Assembly (NCBI GenBank): GCA_017526525.1
Contig: JAFXRG010000040.1
Location: 1-40,916, forward strand
DNA from: Clostridia bacterium
GTDB taxonomy: Bacteria; Bacillota; Clostridia; Christensenellales; Aristaeellaceae
Direction: 5' to 3'
Length of the DNA stretch: 40,916 nucleotides
In this document: piece by piece, positions 7,311 to 14,958 of the stretch
Layout: every line of letters starts with the position of its first letter
How positions within the stretch are numbered: the stretch's first letter is position 1
Position numbers and translations under genes: made by a program
The notes under the pieces: generated by a model
What the model was told of the DNA's origin: nothing
Seen by the model: only the letters and a program-made list of their open reading frames with translations
Databases searched by the model: none

Positions 7311-7393
7311 ATCATAAAAACAATCTGATCCAGAGGCGTAAACCGTCAGCATCAGTCATATCCCGTGAAGGAAACCGGAAAGAAAGGGGTTTC

Positions 7394-10300
7394 ATGAACA
7401 CCATTATCCAAAAACCTGTCGGAGTCTGTCTGGCGCAGGCGCATACCTCCCTGAAGACCGATCTGGTCTCCGAGATGGATCGCGCTGCCCGTGAAAAAGG
7501 CTGCGGCATCATTGCTTTCAACAGCTCGCTGGATTATTACTGGTCCCAGAAAGGGGACCATATTACCGCGTGCATTTACCGCCTGATCCGGTTTGACCAG
7601 CTTTCCGCGCTGGTGATCCTGCACGATAACATTTATGACCTCCACCTCATGAACTACCTGATCACCAACGCCCGTCAGCACGGGCTGCCGGTCTTTTACC
7701 TGGGCGGAATCCGGGAGGACTGCATCAGCATTACGGACGATTACGAAATCCCCTATAAAGACCTGGTCCGGCATGTGATCCGGGATCACGGGGTCCGGGA
7801 TATGTTTTATATTGCCGGGCTCCGCAATGAGGACAATTCCGTCCGCCGCCTCAGGTATTTTCGGGAAGTGCTGGAGGAATACGGCATCCCGCTGCCGGAG
7901 GAAAACGTCGCCTACGGCAATTATCTCGATACCATGGCGGCAGATATTGTTCGAAACCTGGCGGAAACCCGGGAGCACCTGCCCCGGGCCATCCTGTGCG
8001 CCAATGACAGCATGGCCGCCGCGGTGTGCGACGAGCTCCAGGGCCGCGGAGTCCGGATTCCGGAGGACGTGATCGTCACCGGTTTTGACGGGACACCCAC
8101 CGCGTATCTCGGCGTTCCACAGCTGACCACCTGCCATTCCAACCCCGAAGGCCTGTCGAAACTGGTTATGGATCTTGTGGACCGCTATTACCGCGGGGAA
8201 GCGCTGGAAAAAAAATACACCCACAGCTACAAAACCCTGCTGATGGAATCCTGCGGCTGCGGACATGTCCATCATCCGCGTTTCAACGCCCTGCGCACCT
8301 TCCGGCAGGCGGAAACCTTTGTCAACCACGAGAACAACCTGTATTACTCCATGGAACAGCTGCTGGAGCTGAAGGAGCCGCTGGATATTTTCCGGAAGCT
8401 TTCCGCCACGCTGCTGCCCGGCTCCGCCCTGTACCTCAACCGGAGCATGATTGAGGCCAATCCGGACGAAGAGTACCACGCAAACCGGATTGAGGATGAA
8501 CTGATCATGATTCCCTACCGGAAGCCGGATCAGCAGCTGATCTTCCGGAAGGTTTACAGCCGGGATATGCCCCTGCCGGAGCCGGTGACCCAGGGAACCC
8601 ATATCCTGAATGTCATTCATTCCGACACGCTGGTGTTCGGATACTATGCCGCCCATACCACGGACCTGGCAGCGGATACCCAGCTGATCAAGCGGCTGTC
8701 CGATGTCCTGAACATGGTTTACTGCATTGTGGAAGCCAGGAACCGGCAGCGGCAGCTGATTGCCCGCTTTGAAAACAATCTGTATCTGGACACCCTGACC
8801 GGCCTTTCCAACCTGAAAGGCCTGACCCGCTGGTTCCATGAGTATATCTCCGATTCGGACAACCACCGGAAATATCTTTCCCTGTCCGTTTATTCCATTC
8901 CGCGCTATTCATGGATTTTCGAAACCCACGGCATGGAGGAGACGGAAAACACGGTCCGGACCGTCGCGGAACTCCTGCGCCAGTCCAATCCGGACGCGCT
9001 GATCATCACCCGGCTCAATGAAGAACAGTTTAGCGTGGCCAGGTGTTCGGAGACGGAAGCGGACATCACCGCCCGGATCGGGCATGCAGAACAGGAGTTC
9101 CTGCAGCACCTTGAAGCCGTCAACGCCCAGGAAGGACGTTCCTTCCATCTGGAGGTCAGCTTCGGAAGCACTCTGCTGAAAACCGGCTGGGAAAGCACCA
9201 CCGTGGAAAACCTGATCCATCTGGCCATCGGCGAAATGTATCTGAACCGGCTGCGGACCGGAACCCATGAGAATCCGGATGCGGAAACAGCCGGCCACAC
9301 CCTGTACAATTCCCTGATCCTGCTGCTGGAAAAGAACCTGATCCGGTATTTCTTCCAGCCCATTGTGGACGCACACACCGGGCAGATTTACGCCTATGAG
9401 GCGCTGATGCGTTCCGGCGGCGGAATCCAGCTGACCCCCATGCAGATCCTGAGTGCCGCCCGGGAATACGGCCGTTTGTATGACGTGGAACAGATCACGC
9501 TTTTCGGGATCATTGACCGGTATGTCCGGGATTACCGCAGTTTCAGCGGCTGCAAGGTTTTTATCAATACGATCCCGGGCCACTTCCTGACGGAAGAGGA
9601 CTGCAGTGAAATCATGGCCCGGTACGGAAGCTATCTGGACTGCTTTGTGCTGGAGCTGACGGAGGATGACCCCACCTCGGACGAGGAGCTGAAGCGCATC
9701 AAAAAGCTCAGCCATCCGGGAAACCAGATGCAGATTGCCGTTGACGATTACGGAACCGGCCACAGCAATATCGTGAACCTGCTCCGCTATGCTCCCCAGA
9801 TTATCAAAATCGACCGAGCACTGATCACGGATATCGACAAGGATACCAATAAACAGCTGTTCGTCCGGAACACCATCGATTTCGCGCATCAGAACAACAT
9901 CCGTGCCCTGGCGGAAGGCGTGGAAACTGCCGATGAGCTTCGGACCGTCATTGAGTTCGGCATCGACCTGATCCAGGGATTCTATACCGGCCGTCCCTCT
10001 CCCCAGCCGGTCCCGGTCATCAATGAAAACGTCCGGAACGAGATTATCCGGATGAAGCTTCAGGCGGTGCAGTACGGCAGCACGCCGCTGACTTACACCA
10101 TGAGCGACGGCGAAAAGGCCGACCTGCTCCAGCTGCGGCTGCAGCAGGTCAACTGCATCCGGATGGGATCCGGAAGCTTTGTCCTGACCGGGGATCCGAA
10201 GCAAAGCGTGGATATGATCCTGCGGGTGGATGATAATTCAGAATGCACCATCACCTTTGACGGCATCAATATCCGCGGTGTCACGGAGCCTACCGTGGTG

Positions 10301-11284
10301 TTCGGCCGCAGCTGCAGGGTCACCCTGATGCTGAAGGGCGAAAACACCCTCCGGAAGGAAGGCATTGTCGTTCCTCCGGATTCCTTCCTGACGGTGCTCG
10401 GCGACGGCAGCCTGCACATTAACAACAACCGCAACTATTCCGCCGGAATCGGCGGAAGATACAACGATCCTTACGGCACCATTGTGCTGGATCTGGACGG
10501 AAAGCTTTCCTTTTCCTCTGCCGGGGACCGGATCTGCTGCATCGGCGGCGGCCGCAGCGCCGGCAGGGGCATCCGTCTGGTTCGGGGAACCTACGATATT
10601 TCCGCCAGCGGAATCAATGTGGTATGCATCGGTTCCTCCCTGGGGGATGCCTCCGTTCATCTGGGTGAAATCAGCCTGTCCGCTCACGGGGAAGGAAATG
10701 AGGTCCTGCTGATCGGCAGCGTATCCGGCAAGGCAAAAATCGTCTCCTCAGGTTCTCTCCGGCTTTCCGCCGCCTGTGAACGGGCCACCGGAATCGGAGC
10801 CATCAGCGGAGATGCGGAGATCTCCTTTGATGGCGGTTCCGCCGTCGTCTCCGTCAGCTGCGACAGCGGAGCTGCCATCGGCACCTTCAGCGGGGAGCAT
10901 ATGACCACCGTCCGGAATACGCTGATCCGTCTCCACGGGGAAGGAAACCAGCTGGCCGGTCTCGGAAGCCTCCTCGGCATCGGAGAAGTCCGGATCGAAA
11001 GCGGGGAAATCTGCGGGGACCTGCTGGCGGCCGAAAAAATGATCCTGGGAAGCGAAGGATCCCGCTGCGTGGTGACCGGCGGAAACCTGAATTTTGCCCG
11101 GGACCGCAGTGCGATGCCAGTCAGTCCCGACGGTACGCCGCTGGTCTTCAGGATGCCGGAGGAAGATCACTTTGAACGCACCTTCCGGGACCGGAAGGAA
11201 ACCTGGACCTACCGGGCGGACCGGAACGCGGAAGGAAAACTGGGGGTATTTGTTCCGGAAGCGGATCCCGGACAACTCCCCTGA
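7394..11284 (+). CDS. sensor-GGDEF(degenerate)-EAL-beta-solenoid fusion protein
   Basis: A 1296-residue protein without signal peptide or membrane segment. Residues 1-290 resemble the ligand-binding half of LacI/GalR regulators but lack the DNA-binding helix-turn-helix; they end in a Cys-rich ESCGCG. Residues 300-455 look like a GAF-like linker. The GGDEF domain (about 460-630) is degenerate, with RLNEEQF (540-546) in the active-site position. The EAL domain (about 640-890) keeps all key residues: EAL at 669-671, Asn725, Glu754, Asp784-Asp785, Lys805, Glu841 and Gln861. It should therefore cleave cyclic di-GMP. Residues about 915-1240 hold beta-strand repeats with an IG-centred motif every 27-31 residues, of a kind usually met in extracellular carbohydrate-binding proteins. 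The sensor-EAL part has relatives by architecture; I know of no described protein with this C-terminus. Confidence 0.88.
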   Translation: MNTIIQKPVGVCLAQAHTSLKTDLVSEMDRAAREKGCGIIAFNSSLDYYWSQKGDHITACIYRLIRFDQLSALVILHDNIYDLHLMNYLITNARQHGLPVFYLGGIREDCISITDDYEIPYKDLVRHVIRDHGVRDMFYIAGLRNEDNSVRRLRYFREVLEEYGIPLPEENVAYGNYLDTMAADIVRNLAETREHLPRAILCANDSMAAAVCDELQGRGVRIPEDVIVTGFDGTPTAYLGVPQLTTCHSNPEGLSKLVMDLVDRYYRGEALEKKYTHSYKTLLMESCGCGHVHHPRFNALRTFRQAETFVNHENNLYYSMEQLLELKEPLDIFRKLSATLLPGSALYLNRSMIEANPDEEYHANRIEDELIMIPYRKPDQQLIFRKVYSRDMPLPEPVTQGTHILNVIHSDTLVFGYYAAHTTDLAADTQLIKRLSDVLNMVYCIVEARNRQRQLIARFENNLYLDTLTGLSNLKGLTRWFHEYISDSDNHRKYLSLSVYSIPRYSWIFETHGMEETENTVRTVAELLRQSNPDALIITRLNEEQFSVARCSETEADITARIGHAEQEFLQHLEAVNAQEGRSFHLEVSFGSTLLKTGWESTTVENLIHLAIGEMYLNRLRTGTHENPDAETAGHTLYNSLILLLEKNLIRYFFQPIVDAHTGQIYAYEALMRSGGGIQLTPMQILSAAREYGRLYDVEQITLFGIIDRYVRDYRSFSGCKVFINTIPGHFLTEEDCSEIMARYGSYLDCFVLELTEDDPTSDEELKRIKKLSHPGNQMQIAVDDYGTGHSNIVNLLRYAPQIIKIDRALITDIDKDTNKQLFVRNTIDFAHQNNIRALAEGVETADELRTVIEFGIDLIQGFYTGRPSPQPVPVINENVRNEIIRMKLQAVQYGSTPLTYTMSDGEKADLLQLRLQQVNCIRMGSGSFVLTGDPKQSVDMILRVDDNSECTITFDGINIRGVTEPTVVFGRSCRVTLMLKGENTLRKEGIVVPPDSFLTVLGDGSLHINNNRNYSAGIGGRYNDPYGTIVLDLDGKLSFSSAGDRICCIGGGRSAGRGIRLVRGTYDISASGINVVCIGSSLGDASVHLGEISLSAHGEGNEVLLIGSVSGKAKIVSSGSLRLSAACERATGIGAISGDAEISFDGGSAVVSVSCDSGAAIGTFSGEHMTTVRNTLIRLHGEGNQLAGLGSLLGIGEVRIESGEICGDLLAAEKMILGSEGSRCVVTGGNLNFARDRSAMPVSPDGTPLVFRMPEEDHFERTFRDRKETWTYRADRNAEGKLGVFVPEADPGQLP
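10442..11010 (+). repeat. protein-level repeat, about 28 residues per unit
   Basis: Within the fusion protein the pattern hydrophobic-IG-small/polar, followed by SGxA and alternating beta-strand residues, recurs with its Ile or Leu at residues 1019, 1050, 1079, 1107, 1134, 1162 and 1190. The spacing is 27-31 residues, which fits one turn of a beta-helix per unit. The copies are diverged at DNA level, so the array is old and not a recent slippage product. Confidence 0.7.
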
Positions 11285-11362: not shown

Positions 11363-12517
11363 ATGCAGCTGAATTATTTCTTTTTCTACACGGAAGCCAA
11401 TCTCGTCTGTATCATTATTCTGGGAATTCTCCTGATTCACAGCTGTCTGAACAGCACCCGCCAGGAAAAGCTGATCTGGTATAGCCGGACCCTGGCAACC
11501 CATATTTTGTATTTTCTTTCCGACATCGGATGGGCGGCGGTTCTCAGCGGGAATCTTCCGCGGACCCGATTTCTGGTCGTGCTGTTCAACTTTCTGAACT
11601 ATTTTCTGCTCAGTCTGATTGCCTATGAATGGTTCATGTATACGGCTGCCTCCATCCGGATGAAATCCAGGAACAGCAGCAAATTCAGGATTCTGTGGCT
11701 GCTCCCCATGGTGCTTTCCGTCCTGGCCGTTGTGCTGCTCTTCATCATTTCGCCGGAAACCCTGGTCCGGGGAAGCAACGAACTCACGAACCTGTATTAT
11801 CCGATGATGATTGCCGCGCCGATCATCTACCTGGTGACAGCGCAAAGCCTTTCCCTGAACCGGGCCAGGAGGGCGGAATCAAAGGAGGATGCCCAGCAAT
11901 TCCTGCAGATCGGTCTTTATCCGATATGCATCCTGGGATTCGGCCTGATCCAGACTTTCGCCATGAACGCGCCGCTTTTCTGCTTCGGATGCACCGTCGT
12001 CATGATGATTTTCTACATCCGGAACCTGCAGGTTCTGGTTTCCGTGGATTCTCTCACCCGCCTCAACAATCGCGGGCAGATCAGCCGCTATATGCAGCAG
12101 GTTCGTTTCCGGGAAAACATCCGGTCCTATGCCGTCATGATCGATATTGACAATTTTAAAAAAATCAATGATACCTTCGGCCATGCGGAAGGCGACCGGG
12201 CGCTGATGCTGGTTTCGGATGTCCTGAAGCAGGCCGTGGAAAGAATCCGATCCGCAGTGTTCCTCGGCCGGTACGGCGGGGATGAATTCACAATCTTCCT
12301 CCAGTGTGCGGAAGGGGATGTGCCCCCGGATCAGCTGCTGGCAACCATCCGTGAAATGCTGGAGGAACGGCAGGCAGAAACCGATCTTCCCTATGTGCTG
12401 AAAATCAGTGCCGGTTACGACCTGCTCCGGGACCGGAAGGATACCCTGGCTGCCTGCCTGAACCGGGCGGATGAAAAGCTGTATGAAAATAAGCGGACCG
12501 CCAATGTGGGCCGCTGA
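11363..12517 (+). CDS. membrane diguanylate cyclase (GGDEF)
   Basis: A 384-residue protein with about six hydrophobic segments in residues 1-205 and a C-terminal GGDEF domain. The domain begins at DSLTRLNNRGQ, has the IDIDNFKKINDTFGHAEGD metal and substrate block, and an intact catalytic GRYGGDEF (GGDEF at 305-309). It should condense two GTP to cyclic di-GMP at the inner face of the membrane. The inhibitory I-site is absent: the RxxD expected five residues before GGDEF reads RSAV, so product feedback is probably weak. The start has AAAAGGAG upstream. It follows the sensor-EAL gene by 78 bp on the same strand and may be cotranscribed, pairing a synthase with a hydrolase. The N-terminal sensor type is not recognisable. 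Confidence 0.92.
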   Translation: MQLNYFFFYTEANLVCIIILGILLIHSCLNSTRQEKLIWYSRTLATHILYFLSDIGWAAVLSGNLPRTRFLVVLFNFLNYFLLSLIAYEWFMYTAASIRMKSRNSSKFRILWLLPMVLSVLAVVLLFIISPETLVRGSNELTNLYYPMMIAAPIIYLVTAQSLSLNRARRAESKEDAQQFLQIGLYPICILGFGLIQTFAMNAPLFCFGCTVVMMIFYIRNLQVLVSVDSLTRLNNRGQISRYMQQVRFRENIRSYAVMIDIDNFKKINDTFGHAEGDRALMLVSDVLKQAVERIRSAVFLGRYGGDEFTIFLQCAEGDVPPDQLLATIREMLEERQAETDLPYVLKISAGYDLLRDRKDTLAACLNRADEKLYENKRTANVGR

Positions 12518-13065: not shown

Positions 13066-14958
13066 TCATCCCTGCAAATATTTTTCAGCAAAATCCTTCA
13101 TGGGCACAGGCTTTGAAAAATAGTAGCCCTGAAGATAATCGCAGCCGATGTCCGCCATGGCTTCGGCCATTTCCCGGTTTTCAATTCCCTCGGCGGTAAT
13201 GCTGAAACCCATCTGCCGGAACGCCTGTACCAGCGCCGGCAGCAGGGAATCCCGGTCCCGGATGTAGTCCCAGACAATCTTCATATCCAGCTTAATATGG
13301 GAAAAAGAATACTTTTTGACCTGATGCAGGTTTGAAAAGCCGGATCCGTAATCATCCAGCGCCAGCTGAAAGCCGCATTGATGCAGGTCTGCAATTTGTT
13401 TCTCCTGCTTGGAATAATTGATCATGGATTCTTTCGTAATCTCCAGATGAATCTGATCAGCGGAAATTCCGTATTCCTTCAGGATGGAGGAGAAAAGAAC
13501 GGGAAGATGGCTGTGCATGCACTGGATCGGCGAAAGATTCACGTTGATCCAGCGCAGCCCGGAGGAATGCAGGTCATGATCCCGGATAAAGGCACAGACC
13601 TTGCGCAGGACCTGTTCTCCCAGCTGGTTGATGTTTCCGTTTTTTTCGGCGATCGGAATAAACAGGCCCGGGGGAATCATTTTCCCCTCCCCGTCCCGGA
13701 TCCGGGCCAGGGCCTCCGCTGCGGCCGTCTTTCCGGTCCGGCTTTCATTGATCGGCTGCAGGAATACCTCCACCGCGTCGTTCTCAATGGCCTTGTCCAG
13801 CCAGCGTTTGATTTCAATCTGACGGTTGAATTCTTCCAGGGTTTCCGCCGGCATCAGCGTCTGTTCAATGTCCGCGCTTTCGCCTGCCTCGTCAAGCGCA
13901 TAAATCAGCATGTTCACAATCCGGTCCGAGGACAGCGCCCGGGCCGTCAGTCCGATTTCCACGTAAGTGACGTTCAGGTACAGGTCAACACCTTCCGCCT
14001 GCCAGGACTTCTGAAAGCGTTCCGAGATCTCCTTCCGGATTCTGTCCCAGTCGGTTTCATCCGCCCCGGCCAGCGCAAAGTTTCCACCCCGTACATAAAA
14101 TACCAGGCACTGCGGAAACTGCCGAACCAGGTAACTGATGATCAGTCCGAGGCCCTGGTCCATCTGTATTCCGCCGTACATGCTCCGTTTGTCATTGTAA
14201 TTCCGGATCGCAAAGCCGAGGATCCGGTTACCCTTCCGGTGCATCGGATCGTCCAGCCAGTCGGTAAGCGCCCGTGTGTTGAACGCCGGCCCCCGGTCGG
14301 TAATATAGAGGTCCGGATTCTCAAAGGCAAGGAAAATCACAAGAATTGCCAGCAGGCAGAACACGTTCATGACCAGATACTGCGGGAACAGGATCCGTAT
14401 CGTGTTCCCGATGATCAGGATGGCGTGATAACCGAAGGCGCTGATCAGGACGCTTCTGCGAACCTTTTTCCGGTAACGGACCAGCTGGAAAATGCCCAGG
14501 GCCAGGTAAAAGAAGGAACAGGCGGGCAGAATCCAGTACAGGGGGCCCCTGTGATATCCGGCCGCATCCGCCGTATAAACAGCGCCGGTGAACGGACTGG
14601 TTACCACCATGACTTCACAAACCAGGAAAACGGTATAGGACAGCAGCTTGTTCCACGTAAAACCGGATGCTCCGACTTTCGGCAGTTTCATGGTCAGCCG
14701 GAAGAACGCCAGCACCCGGGCAAAAAAAGCAACAAAGAAGGCCATATTCAGCACGGACAGCAACGGGACGGAAAAATCCCGGTAATGATTATCCGCGTAG
14801 GTGGACAGGAGATCCGTAACAATGGCCGCGATATCCGTAATGATCAGTGTCAGGAACGCCTTGTTGATCCGGTTCGGAATCCGGGGCCGGGCAAAATAGA
14901 AAACCAAAAGAACAGAAAGCACCAACAGGCTTGGAATGACAAAATCCATATTCCACAC
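13066..14958 (-). CDS. membrane cyclic di-GMP phosphodiesterase (EAL)
   Basis: A 630-residue protein. About seven hydrophobic segments fill residues 1-215, followed by a degenerate GGDEF domain (RGGNF where GGDEF is expected) and a full EAL domain from about residue 395. The EAL site is complete: EAL at 415-417, Asn in WINVNLS, Glu in LEITKES, Asp535-Asp536 in LDDYGSG, Lys in IKLD, Glu in AEGIEN and Gln in LQGYYFSKP. It should hydrolyse cyclic di-GMP at the membrane, with the GGDEF part perhaps binding GTP as a regulator. The start is a GTG at 14958, chosen because AAGGAAG lies eight bases upstream; an ATG three codons later is too far from it. It diverges from the LacI-type regulator. Confidence 0.92.
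   Translation of the reverse strand: MWNMDFVIPSLLVLSVLLVFYFARPRIPNRINKAFLTLIITDIAAIVTDLLSTYADNHYRDFSVPLLSVLNMAFFVAFFARVLAFFRLTMKLPKVGASGFTWNKLLSYTVFLVCEVMVVTSPFTGAVYTADAAGYHRGPLYWILPACSFFYLALGIFQLVRYRKKVRRSVLISAFGYHAILIIGNTIRILFPQYLVMNVFCLLAILVIFLAFENPDLYITDRGPAFNTRALTDWLDDPMHRKGNRILGFAIRNYNDKRSMYGGIQMDQGLGLIISYLVRQFPQCLVFYVRGGNFALAGADETDWDRIRKEISERFQKSWQAEGVDLYLNVTYVEIGLTARALSSDRIVNMLIYALDEAGESADIEQTLMPAETLEEFNRQIEIKRWLDKAIENDAVEVFLQPINESRTGKTAAAEALARIRDGEGKMIPPGLFIPIAEKNGNINQLGEQVLRKVCAFIRDHDLHSSGLRWINVNLSPIQCMHSHLPVLFSSILKEYGISADQIHLEITKESMINYSKQEKQIADLHQCGFQLALDDYGSGFSNLHQVKKYSFSHIKLDMKIVWDYIRDRDSLLPALVQAFRQMGFSITAEGIENREMAEAMADIGCDYLQGYYFSKPVPMKDFAEKYLQG

What the first reader, a model, noticed from the sequence alone, without database searches (positions are those of the whole stretch)
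7394..11284. Sensor-EAL enzyme carrying an extracellular-looking beta-solenoid at its C-terminus
Seen: a LacI-type ligand-binding domain without DNA-binding part, a degenerate GGDEF, an EAL domain with all key residues, then about 325 residues of beta-strand repeats, with no signal peptide or membrane segment. Known: such repeats (AGIGG and similar) are usual in exported carbohydrate-binding proteins. Inferred: the solenoid may scaffold the enzyme, bind a polymer or ligand, or be a second sensor inside the cell. I know of no described protein with this order.
Basis: partly seen in the sequence, partly recalled or inferred. Interest (0 to 1): 0.75.

Follow-up and report, generated by a model that had tools for sequence, protein, structure and literature searches.

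The report
Cyclic-di-GMP phosphodiesterase with beta-solenoid tail
A Clostridia-like bacterium encodes a signalling enzyme, apparently inside the cell, whose tail is a beta-solenoid of a kind better known from exported proteins, and related bacteria have kept that enzyme-plus-tail pair while changing the sensors at the front.

Summary
It is neither a frameshift nor a one-off: 25 colinear homologues were found in 150 related genomes, one in the same genome. Altogether 52 distinct proteins read here carry EAL followed by solenoid, and all 52 keep the 12 EAL positions tested. N-termini vary: LacI with or without GGDEF, two membrane helices, or nearly bare EAL. Among all 63 EALs of six genomes, the 11 with a solenoid fall in one group of 12; the twelfth lacks it. 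So the solenoid behaves as an EAL-dedicated domain, apparently gained once. Best reading: a sugar-gated c-di-GMP phosphodiesterase whose solenoid is a scaffold or docking module. Its partner or ligand is unknown; carbohydrate binding is possible but unsupported. My paper searches found no description. New variant of a known kind.

The parts
7394..11284 (+). CDS, 1296 aa: LacI-type domain, GAF-like region, degenerate GGDEF, EAL, beta-solenoid
   Evidence: 25 colinear homologues
7383..7389 (+). Shine-Dalgarno-like AAAGGGG before the ATG
   Evidence: read by eye
7412..8263 (+). LacI/PBP-type ligand-binding domain (residues 7-290), no HTH
   Evidence: Pfam; the 50 listed fold matches of the N-terminal model are LacI-family proteins such as CcpA, RbsR, PurR
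8288..8785 (+). GAF-like region and long helix (residues about 299-464)
   Evidence: secondary structure of the model; GAF label by topology only, no Pfam hit
8783..9241 (+). degenerate GGDEF domain (residues 464-616, motif NEEQF)
9326..9997 (+). EAL phosphodiesterase domain (residues 645-868) with E669, N725, E754, D784, D785, K805, E841, Q861
10010..10105 (+). linker and solenoid cap (residues 873-904); I884 and Y901 are 97% conserved in 34 proteins
10106..11113 (+). predicted beta-solenoid (residues about 905-1240); [IL]G[STAG] motif eight times, 27-31 residues apart, from 1019 to 1218
11114..11281 (+). C-terminal tail (residues 1241-1296), low confidence at the very end; short or missing in several homologues

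Best explanation
A soluble intracellular c-di-GMP phosphodiesterase. The LacI-type domain, probably as a dimer, binds a small solute, most likely a sugar. The GAF-like region, the long helix and the catalytically dead GGDEF pass this on to the EAL domain, which hydrolyses c-di-GMP. The C-terminal solenoid belongs to this EAL lineage; most likely it is a rigid scaffold or docking surface that fixes the enzyme's assembly state, partner or location. Shown: domain composition, retained EAL residues, dead GGDEF motif, absence of export signals in the window protein, conservation of the EAL-solenoid pair and exchange of N-termini. Inferred: catalysis, ligand, signal relay, intracellular location and the scaffold role.
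For: Twelve EAL positions invariant in 52 of 52 fused proteins. No GG[DE]EF in 26 of 26 aligned proteins, nor in 41 GGDEF regions, 2 of them gapped at the motif. 47 of 52 match the LacI-type profile; 5 do not, yet keep EAL plus solenoid. In L155 and L156 two membrane helices precede EAL and solenoid, which I take to place both in the cytoplasm. Census of 63 EALs (E up to 1e-10) in six genomes: 11 solenoid-bearing EALs in one group of 12, 2 label changes against 10.4 in shuffles, 0 of 500 as low. Solenoid dN/dS 0.09-0.42 over 22 close, non-independent pairs. I884 and Y901 at 97% suggest a defined EAL-solenoid join; conserved positions within the solenoid are mostly glycine and hydrophobic core.
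Against: No experiment; the ligand is unknown. The solenoid evolves faster than EAL in 22 of 22 pairs and faster than the LacI-type domain in 20 of 22, so its constraint is moderate, and many dS values are near saturation. L222, of the same EAL group, persists without the solenoid. Domain placement in the model is uncertain (pTM 0.46). The branch uniting solenoid-bearing EALs has moderate support (93/74) on a midpoint-rooted tree. No conserved gene neighbour that would name a pathway.
Confidence: 0.55

Rival explanations
1. The solenoid is a second sensor: it binds a carbohydrate polymer or oligosaccharide inside the cell and tunes the EAL domain, as exported relatives bind plant polysaccharides.
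For: Homology to an exported-looking solenoid; weak Cthe_2159 matches in 6 of 26 members, best 9.8e-5. Cthe_2159 proteins are described as binding cellulose and polygalacturonic acid (PMC6712302, passages). 9 of 21 record titles name an animal gut site. 47 of 52 have a LacI-type domain. L161 lies beside a GH127 arabinofuranosidase and a PfkB kinase, L046 and L048 beside a phosphodiester glycosidase.
Against: Plant polymers are not expected in the cytoplasm. No family-wide conserved polar or aromatic cluster stood out. PF14262 cut-off not met.
Confidence: 0.25
2. The solenoid only stabilises or dimerises the EAL domain and has no ligand or partner.
For: Strict position after EAL in 52 of 52; conserved linker positions.
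Against: Over 300 residues is large for a clamp. EAL enzymes in general work without such a tail (general knowledge, not tested), and 52 of 63 EALs in the census lack it, L222 included.
Confidence: 0.2
3. Assembly artefact or frameshift joining two genes, or a decaying fusion.
For: Two isolated solenoid remnants exist (L062, L063) and one homologue lies in two ORFs (L157).
Against: 25 colinear homologues with open frames, purifying selection on the solenoid, 52 distinct proteins with the pair.
Confidence: 0.01

Closest known systems
Sensor-GGDEF-EAL phosphodiesterases such as DosP (PDB 9cmf) and PA0861 (5xgb)
   Same: GGDEF then EAL behind a sensor; DosP is the top NCBIfam hit (102.5 bits, far below its cut-off of 857) and top PDB fold match, PA0861 ranks fourth
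   Different: PAS-type sensors, no LacI-type domain, no solenoid after EAL (partly recalled)
Cthe_2159 family, PF14262 (solved structures 4peu, 4phb)
   Same: Glycine-rich solenoid sequence; sub-threshold Pfam matches
   Different: Below cut-off; the PF14262 proteins read in this genome have signal-like N-termini by eye, whereas this protein has none and is fused to EAL
LacI/GalR family regulators (CcpA, RbsR, PurR)
   Same: Ligand-binding domain in sequence and predicted fold
   Different: No helix-turn-helix; the output is an EAL domain
YkuI of Bacillus (EAL followed by YkuI_C)
   Same: A regulatory domain placed C-terminal to EAL (recalled); YkuI_C is called probably intracellular in PMC8846402 (passage)
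   Different: YkuI_C is a CACHE-like domain, not a solenoid; no YkuI_C match

Membership tests
EAL-type c-di-GMP phosphodiesterase | EAL domain above curated cut-off | tested here: met
   150.5 bits against 31.3
EAL-type c-di-GMP phosphodiesterase | Catalytic and metal-binding residues (list of sites recalled) | tested here: met
   12 positions invariant in 52 of 52
EAL-type c-di-GMP phosphodiesterase | c-di-GMP hydrolysis | not testable with these tools
   needs an enzyme assay
Diguanylate cyclase | GG[DE]EF active-site motif | tested here: not met
   NEEQF here; 0 of 26 with GG[DE]EF
LacI/GalR transcription factor | LacI helix-turn-helix (PF00356) | tested here: not met
   no hit at E up to 1
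LacI/GalR transcription factor | PBP-like ligand-binding domain | tested here: met
   Peripla_BP_3 1.9e-22; fold matches
Cthe_2159 (PF14262) | Score above curated cut-off | tested here: not met
   13.6 and 17.1 bits against 25.8
Cthe_2159 (PF14262) | Beta-helix fold | tested here: inconclusive
   confident beta-solenoid model, but handedness not seen and no direct structural match listed: the 50 PDB rows shown are GGDEF/EAL proteins, viral hits to tail spikes and pectate lyases are weak, E 0.03 or more
Cthe_2159 (PF14262) | Export signal (recalled as usual for the family) | tested here: not met
   no hydrophobic stretch above threshold in the window protein
YkuI_C | Pfam match C-terminal to EAL | tested here: not met
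   not among the hits at E up to 1

The most novel reading that the evidence does not exclude
A new class of c-di-GMP phosphodiesterase in which an intracellular beta-solenoid, captured once from an exported polysaccharide-binding lineage, reads a polymeric intracellular ligand (such as a storage or envelope glycan) and couples it, together with exchangeable small-molecule sensors, to c-di-GMP breakdown.
Probability: 0.18. Interest if true: 0.82.

Novelty: new variant of a known kind. Interest (0 to 1): 0.6.

Why it matters
c-di-GMP enzymes usually carry their regulation in front of the catalytic domain (general knowledge). Here a large solenoid sits behind it and has stayed there across several families of the class while the sensors in front were exchanged. 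That points to an unexplored way of controlling or placing phosphodiesterases, in relatives of rumen and gut bacteria, and to an apparently intracellular use of a fold better known from exported proteins. Natural versions with LacI, with membrane helices, nearly bare, and one without the solenoid give a ready comparison set.

Tried and rejected
Frameshift or misassembly: rejected by colinear homologues. Filing the C-terminus as PF14262: cut-off not met, and profile comparison with a clear PF14262 protein is weak. PDB sequence searches with the C-terminus or its profile gave only chance-level hits, best E 0.22 and 0.038. PHROGs: best E 0.1. Plasmid and phage collections: no match at 1e-3. Conserved neighbour: of six window neighbours only one EAL paralogue turned up, near L169; this saw only the fetched flanks, a few kilobases on each side. 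Hydropathy autocorrelation of the solenoid was not significant (p 0.29); the repeat rests on the spaced motif, its glycines and the model. A first EAL tree (52 fused, 24 other) gave a stem of 2.16 for the fused EALs; the full census showed that this came from missing sister sequences, so I do not use it. The phylum search hit 3 of 398 genomes, all three already known.

Rows set aside: genomes with only weak profile hits (E above 1e-20) were not counted as family members: one, six, five. Of these I read L106 and L173, both with a signal-like N-terminus; L106 and L174 were not matched by my own profile. Two strong hits (G918, G966) were not fetched. Solenoid hits without EAL: fragments L062 and L063, and weak L173. 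Alignment A6 uses 34 of the 52 fused proteins, chosen by me for diversity. Three rows of A1 begin at a residue other than Met.
Full report
Named records found with the C-terminal profile are titled Clostridia, Clostridiales or (4 of 21) Lachnospiraceae; 9 of 21 titles name an animal gut site such as omasum, jejunum, rumen or faeces.

Observation. The ORF at 7394-11284 (+) encodes 1296 aa without interruption, with a Shine-Dalgarno-like sequence before the ATG. Pfam finds Peripla_BP_3, GGDEF and EAL; PF14262 is only a sub-threshold match. AlphaFold models from 22-sequence alignments show a LacI-type fold, a separate GAF-like region and GGDEF (residues 6-640, mean pLDDT 85), and GAF-like region, GGDEF, EAL and a C-terminal beta-solenoid with one short helix near its start, blocks of ten at pLDDT 83-97 (residues 305-1296, mean 84). 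The pTM of 0.46 means that the placement of the domains is not known. An [IL]G[STAG] motif occurs eight times between 1019 and 1218 at spacings of 27-31 residues. Its glycines at 1020, 1051, 1080, 1108 and 1163 are invariant in 34 diverse proteins, those at 1135, 1191 and 1219 are 94, 88 and 71% conserved. A hydropathy autocorrelation test was not significant (p 0.29).

Export signals. The window protein has no hydrophobic stretch above threshold. Of 25 homologues, 3 have one internal stretch above it (residues 55-74 in L059 and L060, 1190-1209 in L057), which I take for core strands.

Not an accident. The C-terminal 404 residues matched 23 of 150 genomes, the window's own included, and gave 25 further proteins colinear from residue 9 or earlier to at least residue 1232; one is a second copy in the same genome, 53% identical over residues 8-1289. 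A scan of genome contigs returned 21 loci, four of them Lachnospiraceae proteins of 1524-1579 aa with an insert between the LacI-type and GAF-like regions. Profile searches hit 6 of 396 genomes drawn from the order, 33 of 300 from the family, 18 of 391 from the class and 3 of 398 from the phylum, the last three already known; one, six and five genomes of the first three counts have weak hits only. Of the ORFs fetched and read, 51 distinct proteins plus the window protein carry EAL then solenoid; solenoid hits without EAL were two fragments and one weak, exported-looking protein.

One pair, many front ends. Of the 52, 36 match the LacI, GAF-like and GGDEF profiles built from the window family, 5 match LacI and GGDEF, 6 LacI only, 5 none. 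These profiles are strict: Pfam sees a GGDEF in L162, counted as LacI only; in L158 Pfam sees none. The five are L103 (716 aa, EAL and solenoid behind a short N-terminus), L169 (889 aa), L155 and L156 (two membrane helices, about 1020 aa) and L157, beside which a 708-aa ORF matches residues 22-621, so it may be a split gene. In L155 and L156 EAL and solenoid follow the second membrane helix, which I take to place them in the cytoplasm.

EAL phylogeny. I collected the 63 EAL domains (E up to 1e-10) of six genomes; each of the 63 matches has its row in the tree. Eleven bear a solenoid and fall in one group of 12 (support 93/74; 99/96 without L155). The twelfth, L222 (908 aa), has LacI-type, GGDEF-like and EAL parts and stops 20 residues after EAL, with no solenoid remnant downstream. 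The nearest relatives outside, L225 and L226, have no solenoid and look like membrane sensors by eye. The tree is rooted at the midpoint; the simplest account is one gain and one loss. A first tree with fewer non-fused EALs exaggerated the separation.

Function. All 12 EAL positions tested are invariant in 52 of 52, so the proteins should be active phosphodiesterases. The GGDEF motif is degenerate (0 of 26 canonical; none in 41 regions, 2 gapped). Solenoid dN/dS is 0.09-0.42 in 22 close, non-independent pairs: purifying, but higher than EAL in 22 of 22 and higher than the LacI-type domain in 20 of 22. Pairwise distances of the domains correlate at 0.84-0.95, as expected for domains inherited together; this does not show interaction. 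Conserved polar sites in the solenoid are few (E1183 76%, S1081 71%, N984 71%), while linker residues I884 and Y901 are 97% conserved. I therefore prefer a scaffold or docking module tied to the EAL domain over an enzyme or a conserved-ligand sensor, at modest confidence.

Known relatives. hhalign with a solenoid protein that has a signal-like N-terminus gives 97.5%, E 4.9e-12; with a clear PF14262 protein of the window's genome only 34.8%. The latter finds the solved structures 4peu and 4phb. Cthe_2159 proteins are described as beta-helix proteins that bind cellulose and polygalacturonic acid (PMC6712302, passages). A 2022 review says that PBP-clan domains are prevalent in c-di-GMP enzymes but only SBP_bac_3 has been studied there; the words solenoid and beta-helix do not occur in its text (PMC8846402, passages). 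Searches joining EAL, GGDEF or c-di-GMP terms with beta-helix, solenoid, LacI, Peripla_BP_3, PBP-like, YkuI or Lachnospiraceae returned either no paper or listings in which I saw no such protein; these papers were not opened, apart from the review.

Context. Downstream lies a separate protein with an intact GGDEF motif (11363-12517, 78 bases away), upstream a divergent UxuA. Of six window neighbours tested, none accompanies the homologues within the fetched flanks, except one EAL paralogue near L169. Pfam scans of 20 neighbours from 14 loci show no common partner; L046 and L048 share a phosphodiester glycosidase, and L161 lies beside a GH127 arabinofuranosidase and a PfkB kinase.

Verdict. A real and conserved architecture, undescribed as far as my searches reach: a c-di-GMP phosphodiesterase with an EAL-dedicated beta-solenoid that is apparently intracellular. 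The function of the solenoid is open.

Noticed in passing
window 11363-12517 (+): Protein with an intact GGDEF motif and a membrane-like N-terminal half (by eye), 78 bases downstream of the phosphodiesterase with its own Shine-Dalgarno-like sequence; a possible make-and-break pair, not found beside homologues.
   Followed up: partly
window 13066-14958 (-): A further EAL protein without solenoid, outside the solenoid group in the tree; the genome has 13 EAL matches.
   Followed up: partly
L222 1076-3799: Member of the solenoid-bearing EAL group that lacks the solenoid and any downstream remnant: a natural loss.
   Followed up: yes
L062 4812-5576 and L063 4967-5347: Isolated solenoid remnants without EAL in two genomes that also have a full-length copy.
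   Followed up: partly
L081, L082, L083, L085: Lachnospiraceae homologues carry an insert of about 230-290 residues, acidic and low-complexity by eye, between the LacI-type and GAF-like regions.
   Followed up: no
L157 348-2528 and 2532-4655: EAL-solenoid and LacI-GGDEF-like parts lie in two adjacent ORFs: fission or frameshift, not decided.
   Followed up: no
L107 1604-6637: 1678-aa protein of the same genome with several Cthe_2159-like stretches and a signal-like N-terminus by eye.
   Followed up: no
L046 8992-9981 and L048 8950-9948: A phosphodiester glycosidase (NAGPA) gene next to two of the homologues.
   Followed up: no
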